Shown one piece after another: positions 32,525 through 43,572 of a DNA stretch of 64,000 nucleotides; the stretch's first letter is position 1; each line of letters starts with the position of its first letter. The translations under genes and the position numbers were made by a program. The notes below the pieces were generated by a model. It was not told the origin of the DNA. It made no database searches and saw only the letters and a program-made list of their open reading frames with translations. The DNA comes from Candidatus Methylomicrobium oryzae (GTDB lineage Bacteria > Pseudomonadota > Gammaproteobacteria > Methylococcales > Methylomonadaceae), in the NCBI RefSeq assembly GCF_016745425.1, contig NZ_JAERVK010000005.1:1-64000 (forward strand), written 5' to 3'.

Positions 32525-33169
32525 ATGAATATCAGTCCCGAAATTTTGCCCCGCTTGATCGAGGCGGTTGCCGATACAATCAAAAAAAATGCCGAGGAAG
32601 TGACCCAACTCGACCAAGCGATCGGCGACGGCGATCATGTGGTCAACTTACAGCGCGGCATCCATGCGCTTAAGGCGCAAAGCGCGGAAATCGGGCAGAC
32701 GGATTGGGTAGGGGCATTGCAGAAAATCGGGATGACCCTGATGTCGACGGTCGGCGGGGCTTCCGGTTCGCTGTACGGGACCTTGTTCGTGACGATGAGC
32801 AAGTCGCTGCGGGACAAACCGGTCGATCGGCAGCGCTTTGCCGATGCGTTCGTGCAAGGCGTCGAGTCGGTCAAGCTGCGGGGCAGGGCGGATGCGGGCG
32901 AAAAAACGATGCTCGATGTACTGATTCCGGCCGCGCAAAGCCTGCAAAAATCGGCCGCTGCCTCCGAAGGATTGAAGGAGTCGCTGGACGAGATCGTCAG
33001 GACCGCCGAAGCCGGCGTCGAGGCGACCCGCAACATGCTCGCGACCAAAGGCAGGGCCTCTTTTCTCGGCGAGCGCACGCTCGGCCATCTCGACGCGGGC
33101 GCTAAAACCGCGCAGTTGATGATTTCGGCGATTGCGGAAGCGCTTGCGTCTTCAGCAGCCCCAACGTAA
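32525..33169 (+). CDS. dhaL: Dihydroxyacetone kinase subunit DhaL
   Basis: This is the nucleotide-binding subunit, 214 residues. The start at 32525 has GGAGG six bases upstream. The Mg-ADP binding signature DQAIGDGDHVVNLQRG (usually GDGDHG.N) and GGASGSLYG are present. An active DhaL passes phosphate to dihydroxyacetone held by DhaK. No DhaM phosphocarrier is nearby, so ATP use or a distant PTS partner are both open. Its last 18 bases overlap the end of dhaK on the other strand. Confidence 0.92.
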   Translation: MNISPEILPRLIEAVADTIKKNAEEVTQLDQAIGDGDHVVNLQRGIHALKAQSAEIGQTDWVGALQKIGMTLMSTVGGASGSLYGTLFVTMSKSLRDKPVDRQRFADAFVQGVESVKLRGRADAGEKTMLDVLIPAAQSLQKSAAASEGLKESLDEIVRTAEAGVEATRNMLATKGRASFLGERTLGHLDAGAKTAQLMISAIAEALASSAAPT

Positions 33170-34141
33170 CGCGGCAGTATGGACCGGCGCGTCCCAAAGA
33201 CGGACCAGTTCCTCGTCTAGCCGTGTCAGCGTCAGCGAAGCGCCGGCCATGTCCAGCGAGGTGGTGAAATTGCCGACCAGCGAGCGGGCGATCTTCAGGC
33301 CGCGTTTCTCCCAGTGTTGGGCGGCCAACTGATAGAGCAGATGCAGTTCGATCAGGGGCGTGCCGCCGAAGCCGTTCACATGCAGCAGCATGGATTGGCC
33401 GGGCTGCGGATTCAGTTCTTCGTCGATCGCGTGCGCCAACTGTTCGACGATTTCGCTCGCGCTTTTTAACGGAACCGTCTCGCGTCCGCGCTCGCCGTGG
33501 ATACCTACGCCCATTTCCATTTCGTTCTCTCCAAGCTCGAAAGTCGGCTTACCGAGCGCAGGCACAGTGCAGCTGGTCAGTGCAACGCCGATCGAGGCGG
33601 TGGCCTCATTGACCCTGTCGCCCAGCGCTTTGCAGGCGGCCAGATCGGCGCCCGTTTCGGCAGCCGCGCCGACCATTTTTTCGACGATCAGTGTGCCTGC
33701 CACTCCGCGCCGTCCGATGCTGTGCGTTTTGGGCAGGGATACGTCGTCGTCGACCAGTACGGTGGCGTTCGGCGCTTCGAACATTTCAGCCGCGATTTCG
33801 AAATTCATTACGTCGCCGGCATAATTCTTCACGATGAAGAGCACTCCGGCGCCTTGGTCGACTGCCTGCGCTGCGGCCAGCATCTGATCCGGCGTCGGCG
33901 AGGTGAAGATTTGTCCGGGGCAGGCCGCATCGAGCATGCCGAGGCCGACAAAGCCGCTGTGCAGCGGTTCGTGGCCGGAACCGCCGCCGGAGATCAATGC
34001 GACTTTTCCGGGTTTGGTCGGCTGCAGGCGTTTGATGAAGTGCGGCTGGAGGTTCAGTTCGACGATATCCGCATGGGCTTTCGCAAAGCCTTTCAGGCTG
34101 TCTTCGAGCAGGCTGTCGAGGTCGTTGATGAATTTTTTCAT
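33152..34141 (-). CDS. dhaK: Dihydroxyacetone kinase subunit DhaK
   Basis: This is the dihydroxyacetone-binding subunit, 329 residues, with the family N-terminal GGGSGHEP loop and His215 in GIHGERG, matching the His that forms a covalent hemiaminal with the substrate in E. coli. It overlaps the upstream HAD gene by four bases (same strand) and is convergent with dhaL. Separation of the two subunits onto opposite strands is unusual; they are normally one operon. In an RuMP organism the product would join glycolysis as dihydroxyacetone phosphate. Confidence 0.93.
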   Translation of the reverse strand: MKKFINDLDSLLEDSLKGFAKAHADIVELNLQPHFIKRLQPTKPGKVALISGGGSGHEPLHSGFVGLGMLDAACPGQIFTSPTPDQMLAAAQAVDQGAGVLFIVKNYAGDVMNFEIAAEMFEAPNATVLVDDDVSLPKTHSIGRRGVAGTLIVEKMVGAAAETGADLAACKALGDRVNEATASIGVALTSCTVPALGKPTFELGENEMEMGVGIHGERGRETVPLKSASEIVEQLAHAIDEELNPQPGQSMLLHVNGFGGTPLIELHLLYQLAAQHWEKRGLKIARSLVGNFTTSLDMAGASLTLTRLDEELVRLWDAPVHTAALRWGC

Positions 34142-34995
34142 GGATGTGGCTCCGGCTGTAGGATGGCTTGACTGCGCAAGGCTTCGGTGACGGCGATGAT
34201 GTCCTGCATCAGCCAGGTCGGCCGATAATCGGAAGCGCGAAGGTCTGCTTCGCTCGAAATGCCGCTCAGCACCATCAGGCTGCGGATGCCGGTGCGTACC
34301 GCACCGAGGATGTCGGTTTCCAGGCGGTCGCCGATCGCAATCGTTTCGGCCGGATCGGAACCCAAAAGTTTCATCGCCTGGCGGTACATGATCGGCTCGG
34401 GTTTGCCGATGATCGTCGGCGAGACGCCGGTCGCGGCGGTCAGGGCGGCCAGGATCGCGCCGTTGCCGTGTGTGACTCCGTACTCGGTCGGCAGTGTCGT
34501 ATCACCGTTGGTGCCGACGAATTTGGCGCCGGCCCGTATATTCAACGTCGCTGTCGCCAGCTTGGCCCAAGTCAGTGTCGAATCCTTGCCGCAGACGACG
34601 ATGTCCGCGCCTTGCGCATCAGGGGTCTTGGGCGTGGGCAGTTCGTAAAGGCCGGTCAACGTAAATCCCTGTTCGCGCAAGGGACCCACGGCGCCGTCCT
34701 CGCCGACCACGAACACGCGGGTCGAGGCCGGGTCGTGGAGTTCGGCAAGGTGCAGAGCGGTCGCCATGCCGGAGGTGAGTATTTGATCCTTCGAAACGGT
34801 GACGCCCATGCCGGCAAGTTTCGTGACATATTGATCCTGCGTCTGGCTGGCGTTGTTGGTCGCCAGGAGGAAGCGGATGTCGAGATCGCGCAGGGTTTCG
34901 AAAAACGCGCACAATCCAGGCTGGGGGACGGAGCCGTGCCAGAGCACGCCGTCCATGTCGATGATCATTGCGCGAATATTATTGAAAGGCTCCAT
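34138..34995 (-). CDS. HAD-superfamily IIA phosphatase (NagD-like)
   Basis: This 285-residue protein has the HAD nucleophile motif MIIDMDGVLWHG (Asp13, Asp15), motif II LLATNNAS and motif IV GDRLETDILGA, with the cap size of class IIA. NagD/Pho13-type enzymes remove phosphate from nucleotides or sugar phosphates. It is translationally coupled to dhaK, which suggests a housekeeping or repair role with triose or hexose phosphates. The substrate is not predictable. Confidence 0.9.
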   Translation of the reverse strand: MEPFNNIRAMIIDMDGVLWHGSVPQPGLCAFFETLRDLDIRFLLATNNASQTQDQYVTKLAGMGVTVSKDQILTSGMATALHLAELHDPASTRVFVVGEDGAVGPLREQGFTLTGLYELPTPKTPDAQGADIVVCGKDSTLTWAKLATATLNIRAGAKFVGTNGDTTLPTEYGVTHGNGAILAALTAATGVSPTIIGKPEPIMYRQAMKLLGSDPAETIAIGDRLETDILGAVRTGIRSLMVLSGISSEADLRASDYRPTWLMQDIIAVTEALRSQAILQPEPHP

Positions 34996-35523: not shown

Positions 35524-36165
35524 ATGGCAAAACCATTAATTCAAATCGCTTTGGACTCTCTGGACTACAACGCAACCATCCAGCTGGCTGAAACCGTCGC
35601 GCCTCATGTCGACATTTTCGAAATCGGCACGCCTTGCATCAAACACAACGGTGTTAATCTGGTTAAGGATCTGCGCGCCAGATTCCCGGATAAACTGTTG
35701 CTGGTCGACCTGAAAACGATGGACGCCGGCGAATACGAAGCAACCCCTTTCTATGCGGCCGGCGCCGACATCTGCACCGTGCTGGGCGTATCCGGTCTGG
35801 CGACTTGCAAAGGCGTTATCAAAGCGGCTAACGCTCATGGCGCCGAAGCGCAAATCGACCTGATCAACGTTGAAGACAAAGTTGCTTGCGCACGCGCTTG
35901 CGCGGAAGCCGGCGCTCACATCATGGGCGTACACACCGGTCTGGACGCACAGGCTGCAGGCCACACTCCTTTCGGCGACCTGAGCGACATCGCCAGATTG
36001 GGTTTGAACGTTAGAATCTCTGTCGCGGGCGGTATCAAGGCTTCGACCGTACAAGACGTTGTTAGAGCCGGTGCGAACATCATCGTTGTCGGCGCTGCAA
36101 TCTACGGCGCTCCATCCCCAGCTGACGCAGCACGCGAAATCCGCGAATTGGTTGAAGCTGTATAA
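35524..36165 (+). CDS. hps: 3-Hexulose-6-phosphate synthase
   Basis: This enzyme joins formaldehyde to ribulose 5-phosphate, the entry step of the RuMP pathway. The 213-residue protein is a TIM barrel of the orotidine-phosphate decarboxylase superfamily, with the signature VDLKTMDAGEYEA supplying Mg and base residues, and a phosphate-binding end SVAGGI and GAAIYGA. It is two bases from the isomerase gene. Codon usage is biased as in highly expressed genes. Identity is reinforced by the neighbour phi. Confidence 0.96.
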   Translation: MAKPLIQIALDSLDYNATIQLAETVAPHVDIFEIGTPCIKHNGVNLVKDLRARFPDKLLLVDLKTMDAGEYEATPFYAAGADICTVLGVSGLATCKGVIKAANAHGAEAQIDLINVEDKVACARACAEAGAHIMGVHTGLDAQAAGHTPFGDLSDIARLGLNVRISVAGGIKASTVQDVVRAGANIIVVGAAIYGAPSPADAAREIRELVEAV

Positions 36166-36167
36166 CG

Positions 36168-36701
36168 ATGCATCAGCAACTTATCATAGACAAAATTTCG
36201 GGCATTCTGTCGACGACCGATTCTTCCTACGATCAACGTCTGACCCAGATGCTTGATAATGCCAAGCGTATATTTGTTTCAGGCGCCGGTCGCTCCAAGC
36301 TCGTTGGCAATTTTTTTGCGATGCGGCTGGTGCATGCCGGTTACGATGTCAGTGTTGTGGGTGAAATTGTCACGCCCAGCATCAAAAGCGGCGATCTGTT
36401 GATTATCATTTCAGGCTCGGGCGAAACCGAGCAGTTGATAGCCTTCACGAAAAGCGCGAAAAAAGTCGGCGCGGACATTGTGTTGATTTCGGCAAAGAGC
36501 AGCTCAACGATAGGCGACATGGCCGATGCGGTTTTCCAAATCGGTCAGGCTGAACAATACGGCAAAGTGGTCGGCATGCCGATGGGTACCGTTTTCGAAC
36601 TGTCGACCCTGTTTTTCCTGGAAGCCACCATTTCTCATATCATCCATGAGAAGGGTATCCCGGAAGAAGTCATGAGAGAAAGGCACGCTAACCTAGAATA
36701 G
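36168..36701 (+). CDS. phi: 6-Phospho-3-hexuloisomerase
   Basis: This enzyme converts hexulose 6-phosphate to fructose 6-phosphate. The 177-residue SIS-domain protein shows FVSGAGRSKLVGNFFAMRL and IISGSGETEQLI loops that hold the phosphate, and the C-terminal MRERHANLE tail typical of the family. It directly follows hps and is closed by an intrinsic terminator. The gene is less GC-rich than its neighbours. Confidence 0.96.
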   Translation: MHQQLIIDKISGILSTTDSSYDQRLTQMLDNAKRIFVSGAGRSKLVGNFFAMRLVHAGYDVSVVGEIVTPSIKSGDLLIIISGSGETEQLIAFTKSAKKVGADIVLISAKSSSTIGDMADAVFQIGQAEQYGKVVGMPMGTVFELSTLFFLEATISHIIHEKGIPEEVMRERHANLE

Positions 36702-36821: not shown

Positions 36822-38816
36822 ATGGCTTCGCGCCGTGTTTTAGCTAACGCCATTCGCGCTTTGAGCATGGATGCGGTTCAAAAAGCAAATTCGGGTCATC
36901 CCGGCGCCCCGATGGGTATGGCGGATATTGCCGAGGTTTTGTGGAACGATCATATGCACCACAATCCGGCCAATCCAAAATGGCCAAACCGCGACCGTTT
37001 CGTGCTGTCGAACGGCCACGGCTCCATGCTGATTTATTCCCTGCTGCACCTGACCGGTTACGATTTATCGATCGAAGATCTGAAACAGTTCCGTCAGTTG
37101 CACTCGAGAACACCAGGCCACCCGGAATACGGCTATGCGCCTGGCGTTGAAACGACGACCGGTCCTCTGGGACAAGGCATCACCAATGCGGTGGGCATGG
37201 CGATTGCCGAAAAAGCTCTGGCCGCGCATTTCAATAAGGACGGTCATAAAATCGTCGACCACAAGACTTATGTGTTTTTGGGCGACGGCTGCTTGATGGA
37301 AGGCATCTCTCATGAAGCTTGCTCGCTGGCGGGTACGCTGGGTCTTGGCAACCTGATCGCGTTCTGGGACGACAACGGCATTTCGATCGACGGCCATGTT
37401 GAAGGCTGGTTTACCGACAATACGCCGAAACGTTTCGAAGCCTACGGCTGGCATGTCATTCCGGACGTCGACGGCCATGATGCGGAAGCGATCAATAAAG
37501 CGATCGAGTTTGCGAAAGCGATGACCGACAAGCCGACGCTGATCTGCTGCAAGACCACGATCGGTTTCGGAGCGCCGAACAAGGCCGGTACTCATGCCTG
37601 CCACGGTGCGCCATTGGGTCAAGAAGAAATCAATTTGACCAAAGCGGCTTTGGGCTGGGATCACGACGCGTTCGAAGTGCCTGCGGATGTTTATGCAGGC
37701 TGGGATGCAAAGGCGAAAGGCGGTGCTGCAGAGACAGCCTGGAATGAGGCGTTTGCGGCTTACAAAGCGGCGCATCCTGAACTGGCGGCCGATTTCGAGC
37801 GGCGGATGAACGGCGACCTGCCTGCCAACTGGCAAGCGGACGCGGACAGCTTTGTCGCTGCCGTCAACGCCGAAGCGAAAACTACCGCAACCCGTCTGTC
37901 GTCTTTGGCATCGATCGAAGGCTATGCCAAATTGCTGCCGGAAATTTTCGGTGGTTCGGCCGACCTCGGCTGTTCGAACATGACCGAATGGTCCGGTTAC
38001 AAGCCGATGCGCGCGAACAAGCCGGATGCGAACTATGTGAACTACGGTGTACGCGAATTCGGAATGGCGGCGATCATGAACGGCATTGCCCTGCACGGCG
38101 GCCTGATCCCGTTTGGCGCGACCTTCCTGATGTTCTCCGAATATGCGCGTAACGCATTGCGGATGGCTGCGTTGATGAAGATCCGTTCGATCTTCGTTTT
38201 CACTCATGACTCTATCGGTCTGGGCGAAGACGGTCCGACGCACCAGCCGATCGAGCAAACTGCAACTTTGCGGATGATTCCGAGAATGCATGTTTGGCGG
38301 CCTTGCGACGCAGTCGAAACAGCCGTTTGCTGGCGTGCAGCAATCGAGCGTAAAGACGGCCCATCGACGCTGGTGTTCTCGCGGCAGAACCTGCCGCATA
38401 TTCCGCGCAGCGAAGAGCAGATCAAATTGATTGCTCGCGGCGGCTATGTGTTGAAAGACTGCGAAGGACAGCCGGACGCGATCATCATCGCCACGGGTTC
38501 CGAGGTCGAATTGGCAGTGAAAGCGGCGGAAGAGCTTGGTGCGAAAGGTAAGAAGATCCGCGTCGTTTCGATGCCGTCCACCAATGTTTTCGATGCGCAG
38601 GATGCGGAATACCGTGAATCGGTATTGCCGTCGACTGTTACCAAGCGGGTTGCCGTCGAAGCCGGCGTAACCGAGTTTTGGTGGAAATATGTCGGCTGCA
38701 ACGGCAAGATCGTCGGTATCGATCACTTCGGTGAATCGGCGCCGGCTGGACAACTTTTCAAGGAGTTTGGCTTCACTGTTGAAAACGTAGTCAAAAACGT
38801 GGAAGCTGTACTTTGA
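36822..38816 (+). CDS. tkt: Transketolase
   Basis: This enzyme transfers two-carbon units in the regenerative part of the RuMP cycle. The 664-residue protein has the thiamine-diphosphate motif [18 protein letters not shown]...WDDN, the invariant His residues at SGHPGAPMG and HTPG-type positions, and the transketolase second domain [37 protein letters not shown] ribosome site precedes the ATG. It is followed by the two GVAKYL-motif genes and then transaldolase. Confidence 0.97.
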
Positions 38817-38825
38817 TTGAAAAAA

Positions 38826-38850
38826 GACGGGATGACTCTGTCATCCCGTC
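38826..38850. terminator. Stem-loop between tkt and the motif-protein genes
   Basis: A perfect 11-bp stem with a three-base loop (38826-38836 and 38840-38850). The A-run lies on its 5' side, so it reads as an intrinsic terminator only on the minus strand. On plus it may be a 3'-end stabiliser or partial attenuator. Confidence 0.45.
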
Positions 38851-38937
38851 GGTTGACGAGATCTTGGGCGCGGGCAGAGGCATAATCCGGTGCTCAAGAT
38901 CCCGATCCACATACTACGACTTATTAGGGTGAACAAC

Positions 38938-39642
38938 GTGAAAATTATAAATATAACGAACGGTGCTTTTGCGGCTTTACTGTTAGCCAGCTCTGTTGCA
39001 GGAGCAGATTCTCAATATCCTGCTTCCGATTTTCAGCCGAAGGTGGTTTATCAGGATCCCGAGTACAAGCATCAGGCAGCGGCCGCTCCAACGGCGTCCA
39101 AAGCGGTGGACTCACAATATCCGGCATCTGATTTCCAGCCGAAAGTCGTCTACTCGGACCCTAACTACAAGCCTGCTGCAGCCGATGCTGCGCCTGCCGG
39201 CAGACCCAAGAATGTAGCTGTCGAAGAAAGCGCGCCTGCAGCGACGGCAAGCCAGCCGGCAGCTCCGGCAGTCACTGCGGCGGAAGAAGCCAAGCCTGCG
39301 GCCGAAGCCAAAAAGGAAGAGTCCAACTTCGTCTATCTGATCGGTCTGGCAGTATTGGCGTTCGTCGGCGTGATCTTTTTCAAGAAGCAAGCGCAGCCTG
39401 AGGGCCATGCGCCGAATGGTTCAGCGCGTTCAGCTGCAGGCGGTGCGACCGGCGTAGCGAAATATCTGAACCGCAAAGCCGGAACCGGCGTATCCAGATA
39501 CTTGGAAAAACAAGTCAAGTCCGCTGCGGCATCCGCTCCATTGACTGGGGTTGCCAAGTACATGGCAAGCCAGAAGGCTTCCGAAAGTGCGCCATCACAG
39601 CCGGTTTCCCGCGTCGAAAAATATCTGCGCGACCGGGGGTAA
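38938..39642 (+). CDS. Membrane protein with TGVAKYL motifs, unknown
   Basis: The GTG at 38938 is chosen because AGGG lies about eight bases upstream and a signal peptide then begins at once, with probable cleavage after SSVAGA; GTGs at 38890 and 38929 are alternatives. In the 234-residue product a 21-residue unit starting DSQYPASDFQPKVVY occurs twice (24-44 and 58-78). An Ala/Pro linker, a transmembrane helix at about 131-148 and a cytoplasmic tail follow. The tail has four seven-residue motifs: TGVAKYL (171), TGVSRYL (183), TGVAKYM (203) and SRVEKYL (224). No known family. The next gene, three bases on, is built from the same motif. Position inside the RuMP block suggests a tether for those enzymes; this is inference. 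Confidence 0.8.
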   Translation: MKIINITNGAFAALLLASSVAGADSQYPASDFQPKVVYQDPEYKHQAAAAPTASKAVDSQYPASDFQPKVVYSDPNYKPAAADAAPAGRPKNVAVEESAPAATASQPAAPAVTAAEEAKPAAEAKKEESNFVYLIGLAVLAFVGVIFFKKQAQPEGHAPNGSARSAAGGATGVAKYLNRKAGTGVSRYLEKQVKSAAASAPLTGVAKYMASQKASESAPSQPVSRVEKYLRDRG

Positions 39643-39645
39643 GGG

Positions 39646-40953
39646 ATGGATCAGGCTTACTTGATCAGCTTGGTCGAGGGATTGTATCCCTTCGGTAAGC
39701 GATCCAAAACAGGAACAAGAAAACAGCAATCATTGGTTCACTCCGGGGATGTTTACGAACAATCTTCCGGAGCGGCCGAGAACATGCCGGTCGTTGCGGC
39801 CAGTACTGGCGTCGCTCGCTATCTGAGCGCCCAGCCTCTGGAGTCCGGTGTAGCGCGGTATGTGAAAAAAAATAAATCACAGCCTGCTACAGGTGTCGGC
39901 AAATATTTGGTGATGCAGTCGATCAAAGGGCGGGAAGAGGCGTGCATCACCGGCGTCAGCAAATATCTGGCGCGTTTCGACAACGATACGCCCGCCAGCG
40001 GTGTTGCAAAATATGTCGCTAAACAGATCATCCAAACCAAATATCTGCCGAAGCGTACTACGGTCGGTCGGTACATCACCCGGCAGGAAATTGCCGAAGC
40101 GAAGCTTGCCGCATTGACCGGCGTTGCGAAATACCAGGCCGAACAGGACTTGTTGCAAAGAAGGCTCGATGCGCAGAAGCTGATCGAGCGTTATCTAGTA
40201 GAGGAAGCGCGTATCGCGGCTGAAAAAACCGCGGCAATGTCAGCTCAACCGGAAACTGTCGTGGAAGCCCCGCAGCCTGCAGAAGCCTTGGAAGCGCCTG
40301 CGGAAACCGGCGTCGGACGGTATTTTCAGCAACAGGCGAAAATTGAGAGCCAAAAACCGCCAGTCAGCAAAGTTGCCAAGTACATCGCTCAACAAGTCGT
40401 TCGGGACAGCCTGAAGCCACGCCAGAGCGGCGTTGCCAAATATTTGGCAAAAAGCCGGGTCTATAAGTCGAAGCCGGTCGTGAGCGGCGTTGCCAAATAT
40501 CTGGAAGCGCAGGCACAGCTTGCAAAAACCAAACCTGCGTTTTCAGGCGTTGCCAAATATTTGATTAGGCAGAGAATATCGATTCCAAATACATCGGCTA
40601 AAATCAGCGGTGTGACAAGATATCTTTCCAAGCAGGCACCGACCGTCGGCGGCAATACCGTCATGAGGCAACAATCCGTTTCTCAAGAATTTGTGTTGAC
40701 GGGGGTTGCTAAATACCTGAGCCGTCAAAACACGGCGGATCATGAAAGCCCTGAACCTATCTTCGTACCGGTCGAGAGATGCTTGGAAGGCGAATTCATT
40801 CCTGCAGCGGAAGCGGTGGAAAATGATGCCGTCACACCCAAAAATGCGAAGGCTACCCGGGTTTCGAAATATATCAGCGAGCATCAGGCTCCGGCGGAAA
40901 AAGCAGCTAAAAAGCCTACGGGCGTTGAAAAGTACCTTCAGCAAACCGCCTGA
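39646..40953 (+). CDS. Multi-copy (S/T)GVAKYL-motif protein, unknown
   Basis: This 435-residue hydrophilic protein has no signal or membrane helix. The motif (S/T)GV(A/S/G)(K/R)Y(L/I/V) appears about 16 times, starting at residues 54, 67, 82, 102, 118, 138, 158, 221, 241, 261, 280, 300, 321, 352, 404 and 425. Degenerate forms lie at 178 (KLIERYL) and 374 (VPVERCL). Spacing is mostly 19-21 residues, and a Gln often follows three residues after the motif. Linkers are basic and Gln/Ala-rich with no shared sequence, which fits a disordered chain of short binding peptides rather than a folded repeat. It is coupled to the membrane protein upstream and followed by transaldolase. Function unknown; scaffold or enzyme-clustering role inferred. 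Confidence 0.85.
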   Translation: MDQAYLISLVEGLYPFGKRSKTGTRKQQSLVHSGDVYEQSSGAAENMPVVAASTGVARYLSAQPLESGVARYVKKNKSQPATGVGKYLVMQSIKGREEACITGVSKYLARFDNDTPASGVAKYVAKQIIQTKYLPKRTTVGRYITRQEIAEAKLAALTGVAKYQAEQDLLQRRLDAQKLIERYLVEEARIAAEKTAAMSAQPETVVEAPQPAEALEAPAETGVGRYFQQQAKIESQKPPVSKVAKYIAQQVVRDSLKPRQSGVAKYLAKSRVYKSKPVVSGVAKYLEAQAQLAKTKPAFSGVAKYLIRQRISIPNTSAKISGVTRYLSKQAPTVGGNTVMRQQSVSQEFVLTGVAKYLSRQNTADHESPEPIFVPVERCLEGEFIPAAEAVENDAVTPKNAKATRVSKYISEHQAPAEKAAKKPTGVEKYLQQTA

Positions 40954-41376: not shown

Positions 41377-42384
41377 ATGGCTAAGAACTTATTGGAACAA
41401 CTCAGGGAAATGACCGTAGTCGTCGCCGACACCGGGGACATCCAGGCGATCGAAACCTTTAAGCCGCGCGATGCGACGACCAATCCTTCGCTGATCACTG
41501 CGGCAGCCCAAATGCCCCAATATCAAAGTATCGTTGACGATACTTTGAAAGGTGCGCGCGACACGCTGGGTCGCGGCGCGACTCCGGCTGAAGTTGCTAA
41601 CCTGGCGTTTGACCGTCTGGCAGTGTCATTCGGATTGAAAATTCTCGAAATCATTCCAGGCCGGGTTTCAACCGAAGTTGACGCCCGTCTGTCCTACGAC
41701 ACTGAAGCAACTATCGCGAAAGGCCGAGAAATCATTGCGCAGTACGAAGCGGCCGGCGTTTCCAAAGAACGCGTACTGATCAAGATTGCTTCAACCTGGG
41801 AAGGCATCCAGGCGGCGGCGGTTCTGGAAAAAGAAGGCATTCACTGCAACTTGACGTTGCTGTTCGGCATGCATCAGGCGATTGCCTGTGCGGAGAACGG
41901 CATCACGCTGATTTCTCCGTTCGTCGGACGCATCCTCGACTGGTATAAAAAAGATACCGGCCGCGATTCTTATGCACCCGCAGAAGACCCAGGCGTCGTT
42001 TCCGTGACCGCGGTTTATAACTATTACAAGAAATTCGGTTACAAGACCGAAGTTATGGGCGCGAGCTTCCGTAACATTGGTGAAATTACCGAACTGGCGG
42101 GTTGCGACCTGTTGACCATCGCGCCGTCTTTACTGGCCGAGCTGCAATCGACCGAAGGCGAACTGCCGCGCAAGCTGGATCCTGCGAAATCCGCCGGCAT
42201 GGAGATCGAAAAAATTACAATGGACCGCGCGACATTCGATCGCATGCATGAAGAAAACCGCATGGCGACAGACAAGTTGTCCGAAGGCATCATCGGTTTC
42301 GAAAAAGCTTTGGAATCTCTGGAAGAGCTGTTGGCCAAGCGTCTGGCCGAGTTGGAAAATCAACCGGAAGCCGTCGAAGCGTAA
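41377..42384 (+). CDS. tal: Transaldolase
   Basis: This enzyme moves three-carbon units between sugar phosphates and is needed for the transaldolase variant of the RuMP cycle. The ATG at 41377 gives 335 residues. The Schiff-base Lys sits in [13 protein letters not shown] and the N-terminal TTNPSL motif is intact, matching TalB-type enzymes. It has its own promoter and terminator, then fba follows. Confidence 0.96.
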
Positions 42385-42492: not shown

Positions 42493-43572
42493 ATGTCGAA
42501 AAAAATTTTAGATGTAGTTAAACCCGGCGTTGTGACCGGAGAAGATGTGCAGAGAGTGTTTGCGATCTGCAAAGAAAATAACATGGCGCTGCCGGCAGTC
42601 AATGTGATCAATACCGATTCGATCAATGCCGTACTGGAAGGCGCGGCGAAAGCCAAATCAGCGGTAATCATCCAGTTCTCGAACGGCGGCGCATCTTTCG
42701 TAGCCGGCAAAGGCCTGAAGTTGGACGGTCAAAAAACCGCGATTCTGGGTGCCGTTTCCGGTGCCCAGCACGTGCATCTGATGGCCGAGTATTACGGCGT
42801 GCCGGTTATTCTGCACACCGACCATGCGGCAAAAAAACTGCTGCCATGGATTGACGGACTCCTGGATGCGGGCGAGAAACGGTTCGCGGAAACCGGAAAG
42901 CCTCTGTTTAGCTCGCACATGCTGGACCTTTCCGAAGAAAGCCTGAAAGAAAACATCGAGATTTGCGGCGAATACCTGAAGCGCATGTCTAAAATGGACA
43001 TGACGCTGGAAATCGAGCTGGGTGTAACCGGCGGCGAGGAAGATGGCGTCGATAATTCCGACGTGGATCATTCCCAGCTTTATACGCAGCCCGAAGACGT
43101 GGCTTATGCCTATGAGCATCTGAGCAAGATCAGTCCCCGCTTCACTATCGCGGCTTCGTTCGGCAACGTACACGGCGTTTACAAGCCGGGCAACGTTAAA
43201 CTGACTCCGAAAATTTTGGATAACTCGCAAAAGTATGTGTCGGAGAAATTCGGCTTGCCGGCCAAAACCCTGAATTTCGTATTCCACGGCGGTTCGGGTT
43301 CTACTCCGGAAGAAATTGCCGAATCGATCAGCTACGGTGTCGTGAAGATGAATATCGACACCGACACCCAATGGGCAACGTGGGAAGCCATCATGAATTT
43401 CTACAAGAAAAATGAAGGTTACCTGCAAGGCCAGATCGGCAACCCCGAAGGCGACGACAAGCCGAACAAGAAGTATTACGATCCGCGCGTTTGGCAGCGG
43501 GAAGGCGAGCTCGGCATGGTCAGCCGCCTGCAGCAGGCCTTCATGGATCTGAACTCAGTTAACTCGCTGTAA
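42493..43572 (+). CDS. fba: Fructose-bisphosphate aldolase, class II
   Basis: This enzyme cleaves fructose 1,6-bisphosphate to two trioses. The 359-residue zinc enzyme matches E. coli FbaA in length and motifs: HTDHAAKKLLPWIDGLL (zinc His and catalytic Asp), GVTGGEEDGVD, and FHGGSGSTPEEI with NIDTDTQWA for phosphate binding. It closes the RuMP block together with tal. Confidence 0.97.
   Translation: MSKKILDVVKPGVVTGEDVQRVFAICKENNMALPAVNVINTDSINAVLEGAAKAKSAVIIQFSNGGASFVAGKGLKLDGQKTAILGAVSGAQHVHLMAEYYGVPVILHTDHAAKKLLPWIDGLLDAGEKRFAETGKPLFSSHMLDLSEESLKENIEICGEYLKRMSKMDMTLEIELGVTGGEEDGVDNSDVDHSQLYTQPEDVAYAYEHLSKISPRFTIAASFGNVHGVYKPGNVKLTPKILDNSQKYVSEKFGLPAKTLNFVFHGGSGSTPEEIAESISYGVVKMNIDTDTQWATWEAIMNFYKKNEGYLQGQIGNPEGDDKPNKKYYDPRVWQREGELGMVSRLQQAFMDLNSVNSL

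What the first reader, a model, noticed from the sequence alone, without database searches (positions are those of the whole stretch)
39646..40953. A protein made of about 16 short (S/T)GVAKYL motifs inside the RuMP block
Seen: a 435-residue hydrophilic protein has the heptad (S/T)GV(A/S/G)(K/R)Y(L/I/V) at about 20-residue spacing, with linkers that share no other similarity. Known: short conserved peptides in variable linkers act as docking motifs in scaffold proteins such as carboxysome CsoS2. Inference: this could be a scaffold that binds many copies of one partner, perhaps a RuMP enzyme, because it sits between transketolase and transaldolase. I know of no described family with this motif.
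Basis: partly seen in the sequence, partly recalled or inferred. Interest (0 to 1): 0.9.

Follow-up and report, generated by a model that had tools for sequence, protein, structure and literature searches.

The report
Likely scaffold for formaldehyde-fixing enzymes
Methane-eating bacteria carry an undescribed pair of proteins, one predicted to sit in the membrane and one soluble, that share a short repeated peptide and are encoded beside the enzyme that captures formaldehyde, so they may tie that enzyme together and to the membrane.

Summary
The 435-residue protein (B) has 16 V-x-(K/R)-Y motifs; shuffling never gives more than 4.

The module sits in hps-phi-tkt-A-B-tal-fba in Methylococcales (A profile: 168 of 201 genomes). 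A second lineage (unnamed family f10) keeps a short motif protein between hps and tal. In 369 class-wide genomes the six with the motif are the six with hps. Of 117 motif frames, 98 lie within 6 kb of hps; 14 of 19 misses are cut by contig ends. Motifs are under much stronger purifying selection than linkers.

Best reading: a multivalent docking scaffold plus membrane tether for a RuMP enzyme, most likely Hps, working like EPYC1/RBMP in algal pyrenoids. Binding is inferred, not shown. Against it: in f10 a ChpA-type kinase carries the motif; a third motif protein lies away from RuMP genes; another hps-bearing family has no match in 187 genomes. No curated family fits A or B.

The parts
35524..36165 (+). 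hps, 3-hexulose-6-phosphate synthase (213 aa); nearest invariant neighbour of the motif genes and most likely docking partner
   Evidence: TIGR03128 over cut-off; Pfam PF00215; linkage
36168..36701 (+). phi, 6-phospho-3-hexuloisomerase (177 aa)
   Evidence: named from sequence and position; conserved in neighbourhoods
36822..38816 (+). tkt, transketolase (664 aa)
   Evidence: named from sequence; within 6 kb of 75 of 117 motif frames, none in family f10 stretches except L171
38929..39642 (+). A: predicted membrane tether, start taken as GTG 38929 (inferred from relatives): N-terminal hydrophobic segment, two YPASDFQPKVVYxD repeats, one transmembrane span, tail with four motifs
   Evidence: profile matches 168 of 201 genomes of the order
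39013..39171 (+). YPA repeats of A (two copies, about 39013-39069 and 39112-39171), predicted periplasmic
   Evidence: alignment A1; topology is inference
39325..39381 (+). predicted transmembrane span of A, followed by KK
   Evidence: hydropathy maximum 2.44 over 19 residues; helix 132-153 in the model
39448..39627 (+). four motifs in the tail of A (39448, 39484, 39544, 39607)
39646..40953 (+). B: soluble multivalent linker, 435 aa, 16 V-x-(K/R)-Y motifs from 39805 to 40938
   Evidence: no membrane span; AF2 helix at each of the 16 motifs
41377..42384 (+). tal, transaldolase (ATG 41377; 335 aa)
   Evidence: Pfam PF00923; within 6 kb of 98 of 117 motif frames
42493..43572 (+). fba, fructose-bisphosphate aldolase (359 aa)
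   Evidence: named from sequence; within 6 kb of 53 of 117 motif frames

Best explanation
A and B form a multivalent docking system for a formaldehyde-fixation enzyme. The motif (S/T)-G-V-x-(K/R)-Y-(L/I)-x-x-Q is a short helix with S/T at its N-cap and V, Y and L on one face. It docks on a site of a RuMP enzyme, most likely the oligomeric Hps, with transaldolase the next candidate. B, with 16 copies on flexible linkers, crosslinks many enzyme molecules into a cluster. A, held by one membrane span and carrying four copies on its cytosolic tail, ties the cluster to the membrane, where periplasmic methanol dehydrogenase (established knowledge, not tested here) releases formaldehyde. Shown: the motif, its conservation and selection, its presence on a predicted membrane protein, and its link to hps in two lineages. 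Inferred: docking, partner, clustering, topology and benefit (toxic formaldehyde captured where it enters).
For: Motifs far above chance. All 21 invariant columns of the B alignment (26 rows) are motif residues, 20 of them V or Y. dN/dS of motif 10-mers 0.04-0.09 against 0.13-0.37 for linkers in 5 of 5 B pairs, 0.06 against 0.21 in the one A pair. The same motif on A. A helix begins one or two residues after the start of 16 of 16 motifs in B and 4 of 4 in A, with low overall confidence and pTM 0.22 and 0.17, as expected of disordered docking proteins. hps within 6 kb of 98 of 117 motif frames. hps and motif in the same 6 of 369 class-wide genomes. In f10 the order hps - motif protein - tal in 25 of 28 loci. 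When the block is duplicated, A and B each follow their own hps-phi or hps-phi-tkt copy (L077, L078, L079, L089).
Against: No binding was tested. In f10 a chemosensory kinase carries the motif (16 read of about 35 matched) and a third motif protein has no RuMP neighbours, so the partner may lie outside the pathway. Within Methylococcales tkt is as tightly linked as hps (73 and 69 of 85 frames). Eight f4 genomes have hps but no A match. Family f206 (strong hps) has no motif match in 187 of 187, and two further hps-bearing genomes (G768, G970) were not searched for the motif; the 16 kb around hps in G970 shows none. One A-like gene (L162) has no RuMP gene in 19.9 kb. Comparison of Hps groups gave no convincing docking patch. 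The genomes are not independent: two clades, and joint transfer with hps is possible.
Confidence: 0.55

Rival explanations
1. The motif docks on a general cell-organising hub (polar, membrane or array protein), not on a RuMP enzyme; A, B, the third motif protein and the f10 kinase are separate clients of that hub, and A/B bring the RuMP enzymes there by other contacts.
For: Motif in ChpA-type kinases of f10 and in a third protein without RuMP neighbours.
Against: A, B and the f10 short protein lie in RuMP operons; outside hps-bearing genomes the motif profile found nothing in 363 of 369 class-wide genomes.
Confidence: 0.2
2. The motif binds itself: helices from A and B bundle together and make a condensate or meshwork into which other things partition.
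For: Same motif on A and B; amphipathic short helices.
Against: Very strict Y over F (317 of 323) and V (390 of 395) fits a defined pocket better than a loose bundle; f10 loci examined show one short motif protein with 3-8 copies and no A except in L171.
Confidence: 0.1
3. A and B are structural proteins of the intracytoplasmic membranes of methanotrophs, with the RuMP block as a mere location.
For: A is a predicted membrane protein of Methylococcales.
Against: The motif protein also sits in the RuMP block of f10, which I believe to be methanol users without such membranes (inferred, not tested).
Confidence: 0.06
4. B is a basic nucleic-acid-binding or regulatory protein of the operon.
For: Net charge about +24; K or R in each motif.
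Against: V and Y are the invariant residues while K and R interchange; in f10 the residue before K/R is E in 91%; the same motif hangs on a predicted membrane protein.
Confidence: 0.04

Closest known systems
Chlamydomonas pyrenoid: EPYC1 linker with RBMP1/2 and SAGA1/2 (review PMC10473226, passages read)
   Same: One short motif shared by a disordered multivalent linker, by membrane proteins and by other clients; beside the carbon-fixing enzyme; motif within a lineage only
   Different: Different motif, organism and pathway; enzyme binding and phase separation are shown there and untested here; no kinship claimed
Carboxysome scaffold CsoS2 (recalled)
   Same: Short repeats in a disordered scaffold next to a carbon-fixing enzyme's genes
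   Different: No Pfam match over cut-off; no shell genes named in the operon; a membrane tether instead of a shell
Engineered Mdh-Hps-Phi assemblies for synthetic methylotrophy (PMC8879981, passages read)
   Same: Bring formaldehyde production and Hps together to improve capture
   Different: Man-made fusions and complexes; this would be a natural counterpart
Natural Hps-Phi fusions (a 409-aa hps frame in this genome)
   Same: Keep consecutive RuMP steps together
   Different: Covalent fusion of two enzymes, no separate scaffold

Membership tests
EPYC1/RBMP-type linker and tether system (works-like comparison) | Several copies of one short motif in a disordered linker protein | tested here: met
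EPYC1/RBMP-type linker and tether system (works-like comparison) | Same motif on a membrane protein | tested here: met
   predicted span and four motifs in A
EPYC1/RBMP-type linker and tether system (works-like comparison) | Motif binds the carbon-fixing enzyme | not testable with these tools
   no complex prediction or binding assay available; gene linkage only
EPYC1/RBMP-type linker and tether system (works-like comparison) | Linker and enzyme phase-separate | not testable with these tools
   needs purified proteins
EPYC1 protein family (kinship) | Sequence homology to EPYC1 | not tested
   EPYC1 was not fetched or compared; no kinship claimed
CsoS2 carboxysome scaffold | Match to a CsoS2 family model | tested here: not met
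   best Pfam match of B is PF05771 at 18.4 bits, under its cut-off of 22.4; none is CsoS2
Any curated family for A or B | Match over curated cut-off, or a PDB sequence relative | tested here: not met
   Pfam, NCBIfam; PDB profile searches 0 at E 0.1. Pfam also gave nothing over cut-off for the third motif protein, the YPA protein and two f10 motif proteins

The most novel reading that the evidence does not exclude
A is a transmembrane formaldehyde relay: its periplasmic YPA repeats dock the methanol-oxidising machinery, its cytosolic tail docks Hps, and B condenses the RuMP enzymes into a membrane-bound, pyrenoid-like body for C1 fixation. In the f10 lineage the same tag also ties a chemosensory kinase to that body and so couples motility to C1 metabolism.
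Probability: 0.17. Interest if true: 0.96.

Novelty: new variant of a known kind. Interest (0 to 1): 0.85.

Why it matters
To my knowledge it would be the first natural scaffold proposed for the RuMP cycle, the route by which type I methanotrophs turn methane carbon into biomass. It offers a testable answer to how cells capture toxic formaldehyde where it enters the cell, and a short docking tag for engineering synthetic methylotrophs, where artificial Mdh-Hps-Phi assemblies are already used (PMC8879981, passages). My recollection that older biochemistry found Hps activity in the particulate fraction of Methylococcus would be explained by it, but I could not verify that (papers not held; nothing to the point in the listings).

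Tried and rejected
Chance or low complexity: rejected by shuffles and by selection on motif residues.

Motif copies elsewhere in the own genome: the DNA pattern gave 20 matches (its control, the pattern read backwards, gave 2). 14 lie in A or B and 2 in the third motif protein. For three of the other four (C6, C7, C64:58747) the frame that holds the letters looks to me like a non-coding frame; C64:77940 printed nothing there and stays unresolved.

Hps residues specific to motif-linked copies: five weak positions, not convincing. Viral contigs: no relatives of A or of the f206 Hps confirmed. Amphipathic N-terminus of B: clear in f10 proteins, uneven in Methylococcales by hydrophobic moment. Sub-threshold family matches (PF05771 for B; PF14960 for one f10 protein) were taken as chance.

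Paper searches on RuMP scaffolds, metabolons or membrane-bound Hps gave nothing to the point in the listings. Of papers I read passages only, of PMC517821, PMC8879981 and PMC10473226.

Limits of counts: the expression fixes V and Y, so their 100% there is by construction; searches are independent of that, except that still fixes the other motif positions. In one of the five dN/dS pairs (L077/L079) dS is saturated. The 117 frames come from 83 stretches with at least two motifs; they include four frames for two genes in L158 and two for one broken gene in L063. L157 was not given to that call; L167 and L192 gave no frame; A-like proteins without motifs (A') are not counted. That 14 misses are contig ends was judged from coordinates. 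The order cross-table is my count from the lists. Some f4 matches of the A profile may rest on the YPA region alone; I read motif-bearing tails outside family f1 in G003, G070, G011 (f4), G018 (f6) and G004 (f5) only.

Full report
CHECK. The ORF at 39646-40953 encodes a 435-residue protein with 16 V-x-(K/R)-Y motifs, 10 of them strict [ST]GV[ASGT][KR]Y[LIVM]; 10,000 shuffles reach at most 1 strict or 4 loose motifs. The usual spacing is 20 residues. The heptad is part of a longer signature with P at -2 (40%) and Q at +10 (63%) in 437 motifs of 29 relatives. In an alignment of 26 B proteins made without any motif expression, all 21 invariant columns are motif residues: 20 are V or Y, one is the T of the first motif.

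THE MISSING HALF. The ORF just upstream (A, 38929-39642) ends 3 bases before B begins. A has an N-terminal hydrophobic segment, two YPASDFQPKVVYxD repeats, one strong transmembrane stretch followed by KK, and a tail with four motifs, the last close to the C-terminus. By the positive-inside rule the tail is cytosolic and the YPA repeats periplasmic; this is inference. AF2 models of B and A have low confidence (pLDDT 61.8 and 58.4, pTM 0.22 and 0.17); a helix begins within two residues of the start of each of the 16 motifs in B and each of the four in A, mostly with coil between. B has no membrane span.

SELECTION. In five of five B pairs motif 10-mers have dN/dS 0.04-0.09 and linkers 0.13-0.37 (one pair has saturated dS); in the one A pair 0.06 against 0.21. 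With the position left free, Y is found in 317 of 323 cases (6 F) and V in 390 of 395. The protein is kept for its motifs, and the recognition is precise.

NEIGHBOURHOOD. In 83 stretches with 117 motif-bearing frames, hps lies within 6 kb on the same strand of 98, tal of 98, tkt of 75, phi of 67, fba of 53. Of the 19 frames without hps, 14 are cut off by a contig end; the rest are the third motif protein (L063, two frames; L159), a kinase (L155) and one A-like gene without RuMP neighbours (L162). Outside f10 the counts are hps 69, tkt 73, tal 67 of 85; in f10 hps 29 and tal 31 of 32. The arrangements are hps-phi-tkt-A-B-tal-fba (window, Methyloglobulus morosus L034 and many others), hps-tkt-A'-B in genus g5 (A' has the YPA repeats only; 7 read) with a separate hps-phi-tkt-A-tal-fba, tandem hps-phi-tkt-B and hps-phi-tkt-A blocks (L078, L089), hps-phi-B before hps-phi-tkt-A-tal-fba (L077, L079), hps-B (L081), A-hps-phi (L158, L161) and, in f10, hps - motif protein - tal - hps-phi. 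Hps is the gene common to these arrangements. In f10 the triplet hps - motif protein - tal shows in 25 of 28 short loci; of the others L178 begins at a contig end, L192 had no frame with enough motifs, and L171 has tkt-A-B-tal-fba.

DISTRIBUTION. In 201 genomes of the order the A profile matches 168 and hps 170: both 162, A only 6 (four of them f1 genomes whose A or B lies at a contig end; the other two are G009 and G046), hps only 8 (all family f4), neither 25. B as a single query matches 136 of 201. In 369 genomes across the class, motif and hps mark the same six (chance overlap 3e-13 if genomes were independent, which they are not): three in the order, three in f10. In f10, 53 of 57 genomes match the B profile, 46 of them in a short frame and 7 only in the kinase frame (my count). 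In f206, another family with strong hps, 0 of 187 match. A phylum-wide hps search gave 11 of 398 genomes, 4 over the cut-off, among them G768 and G970, which were not searched for the motif; 16 kb around hps in G970 holds none. That the order is Methylococcales follows from L033, a named Methylococcales MAG contig of the same length (8,798) as the G163 contig with the match.

RESULTS THAT DO NOT FIT NEATLY. In f10 a large kinase (Pfam on one of them: Hpt, ATPase, CheW, receiver), beside PilG/H/I/J-like genes in the two loci I read with flanks (named from sequence), carries 2-7 motifs in a linker: 14 of 14 newly fetched (shuffles at most 1), plus L155 and L157. One search lists matches in frames of 733-2,065 aa in 35 of 57 genomes by my count; 16 were read. 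The window's own genome has a third motif protein with a Cys/His-rich end and no RuMP neighbours, with a relative in G008. The motif is thus a reusable tag. That is natural if the partner forms a cluster to which other proteins are recruited, as Rubisco-binding motifs do in the pyrenoid (PMC10473226, passages); it also leaves room for a partner outside the RuMP cycle.

A PARALLEL. The f206 genome G960 has two Hps copies; one ends in GSQSSGGLFGWLKKLFS, a short amphipathic tail of a kind that binds membranes, the other does not. One genome only, but it would be another way of bringing Hps to the membrane where the motif system was not found. The f10 motif proteins likewise begin with an amphipathic segment.

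MECHANISM. I commit to an enzyme-docking scaffold with a membrane tether, Hps the likeliest partner, at 0.55. Shown: the motif, its conservation and selection, its presence on a predicted membrane protein, its link to hps. Inferred: binding, partner, clustering, topology, benefit. It works like EPYC1 with RBMP1/2; no kinship is claimed. No CsoS2 model is matched.

NOVELTY. No Pfam or NCBIfam family over cut-off and no PDB sequence relative for A and B. Six motif strings gave one unrelated paper and six further motif and YPA strings none; the library holds open-licence PMC papers only. As a way of working it is a variant of a known kind; as a protein family and as an organiser of formaldehyde fixation I found no precedent in these searches.

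Noticed in passing
L242-L255, L155, L157 (family f10 genomes): A ChpA-type multi-Hpt chemosensory kinase carries 2-7 copies of the motif (for example TSVERYIQQQ) in a linker; read in 16 genomes, matched in about 35 of 57.
   Followed up: partly
L063 9461-10683 (own genome C1:167461-168683): Third motif protein, interrupted by a run of N, with a Cys/His-rich end (CxxxTxxGxxCK...CxxH); its first eight residues MAKNLLEQ equal those of the window's transaldolase. Relative in G008 (L159). No Pfam match.
   Followed up: partly
L238 8817-9515 (G960, family f206): An Hps copy with a C-terminal amphipathic tail GSQSSGGLFGWLKKLFS; the second copy (L239) lacks it. One genome seen.
   Followed up: partly
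L064 4725-4997 (own genome C4): A 90-residue protein with a signal-like start and two YPA repeats and nothing else, like A' of genus g5.
   Followed up: no
window 33152-34995: A dihydroxyacetone-kinase-like gene and a HAD-phosphatase-like gene (named from sequence) lie next to hps in the window and also in the f10 loci L153, L154, L156.
   Followed up: no
window 38826-38850: An 11-pair inverted repeat between tkt and A, listed as terminator-like on the minus strand; may separate tkt from A-B.
   Followed up: no
L158 (G003): Tandem duplicated RuMP block with many broken frames; resembles the 5,267-bp direct repeat around tal reported for Methylococcus capsulatus Bath (PMC517821, passages).
   Followed up: partly
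L171 (G576, family f10): A methanotroph-type tkt-A-B-tal-fba order in a genome of the other lineage (77% complete, 5% contamination): contamination or transfer.
   Followed up: no
own genome C11:232674-233285 (L241): A second hps in a 409-aa frame, apparently an Hps-Phi fusion, away from the motif genes.
   Followed up: no
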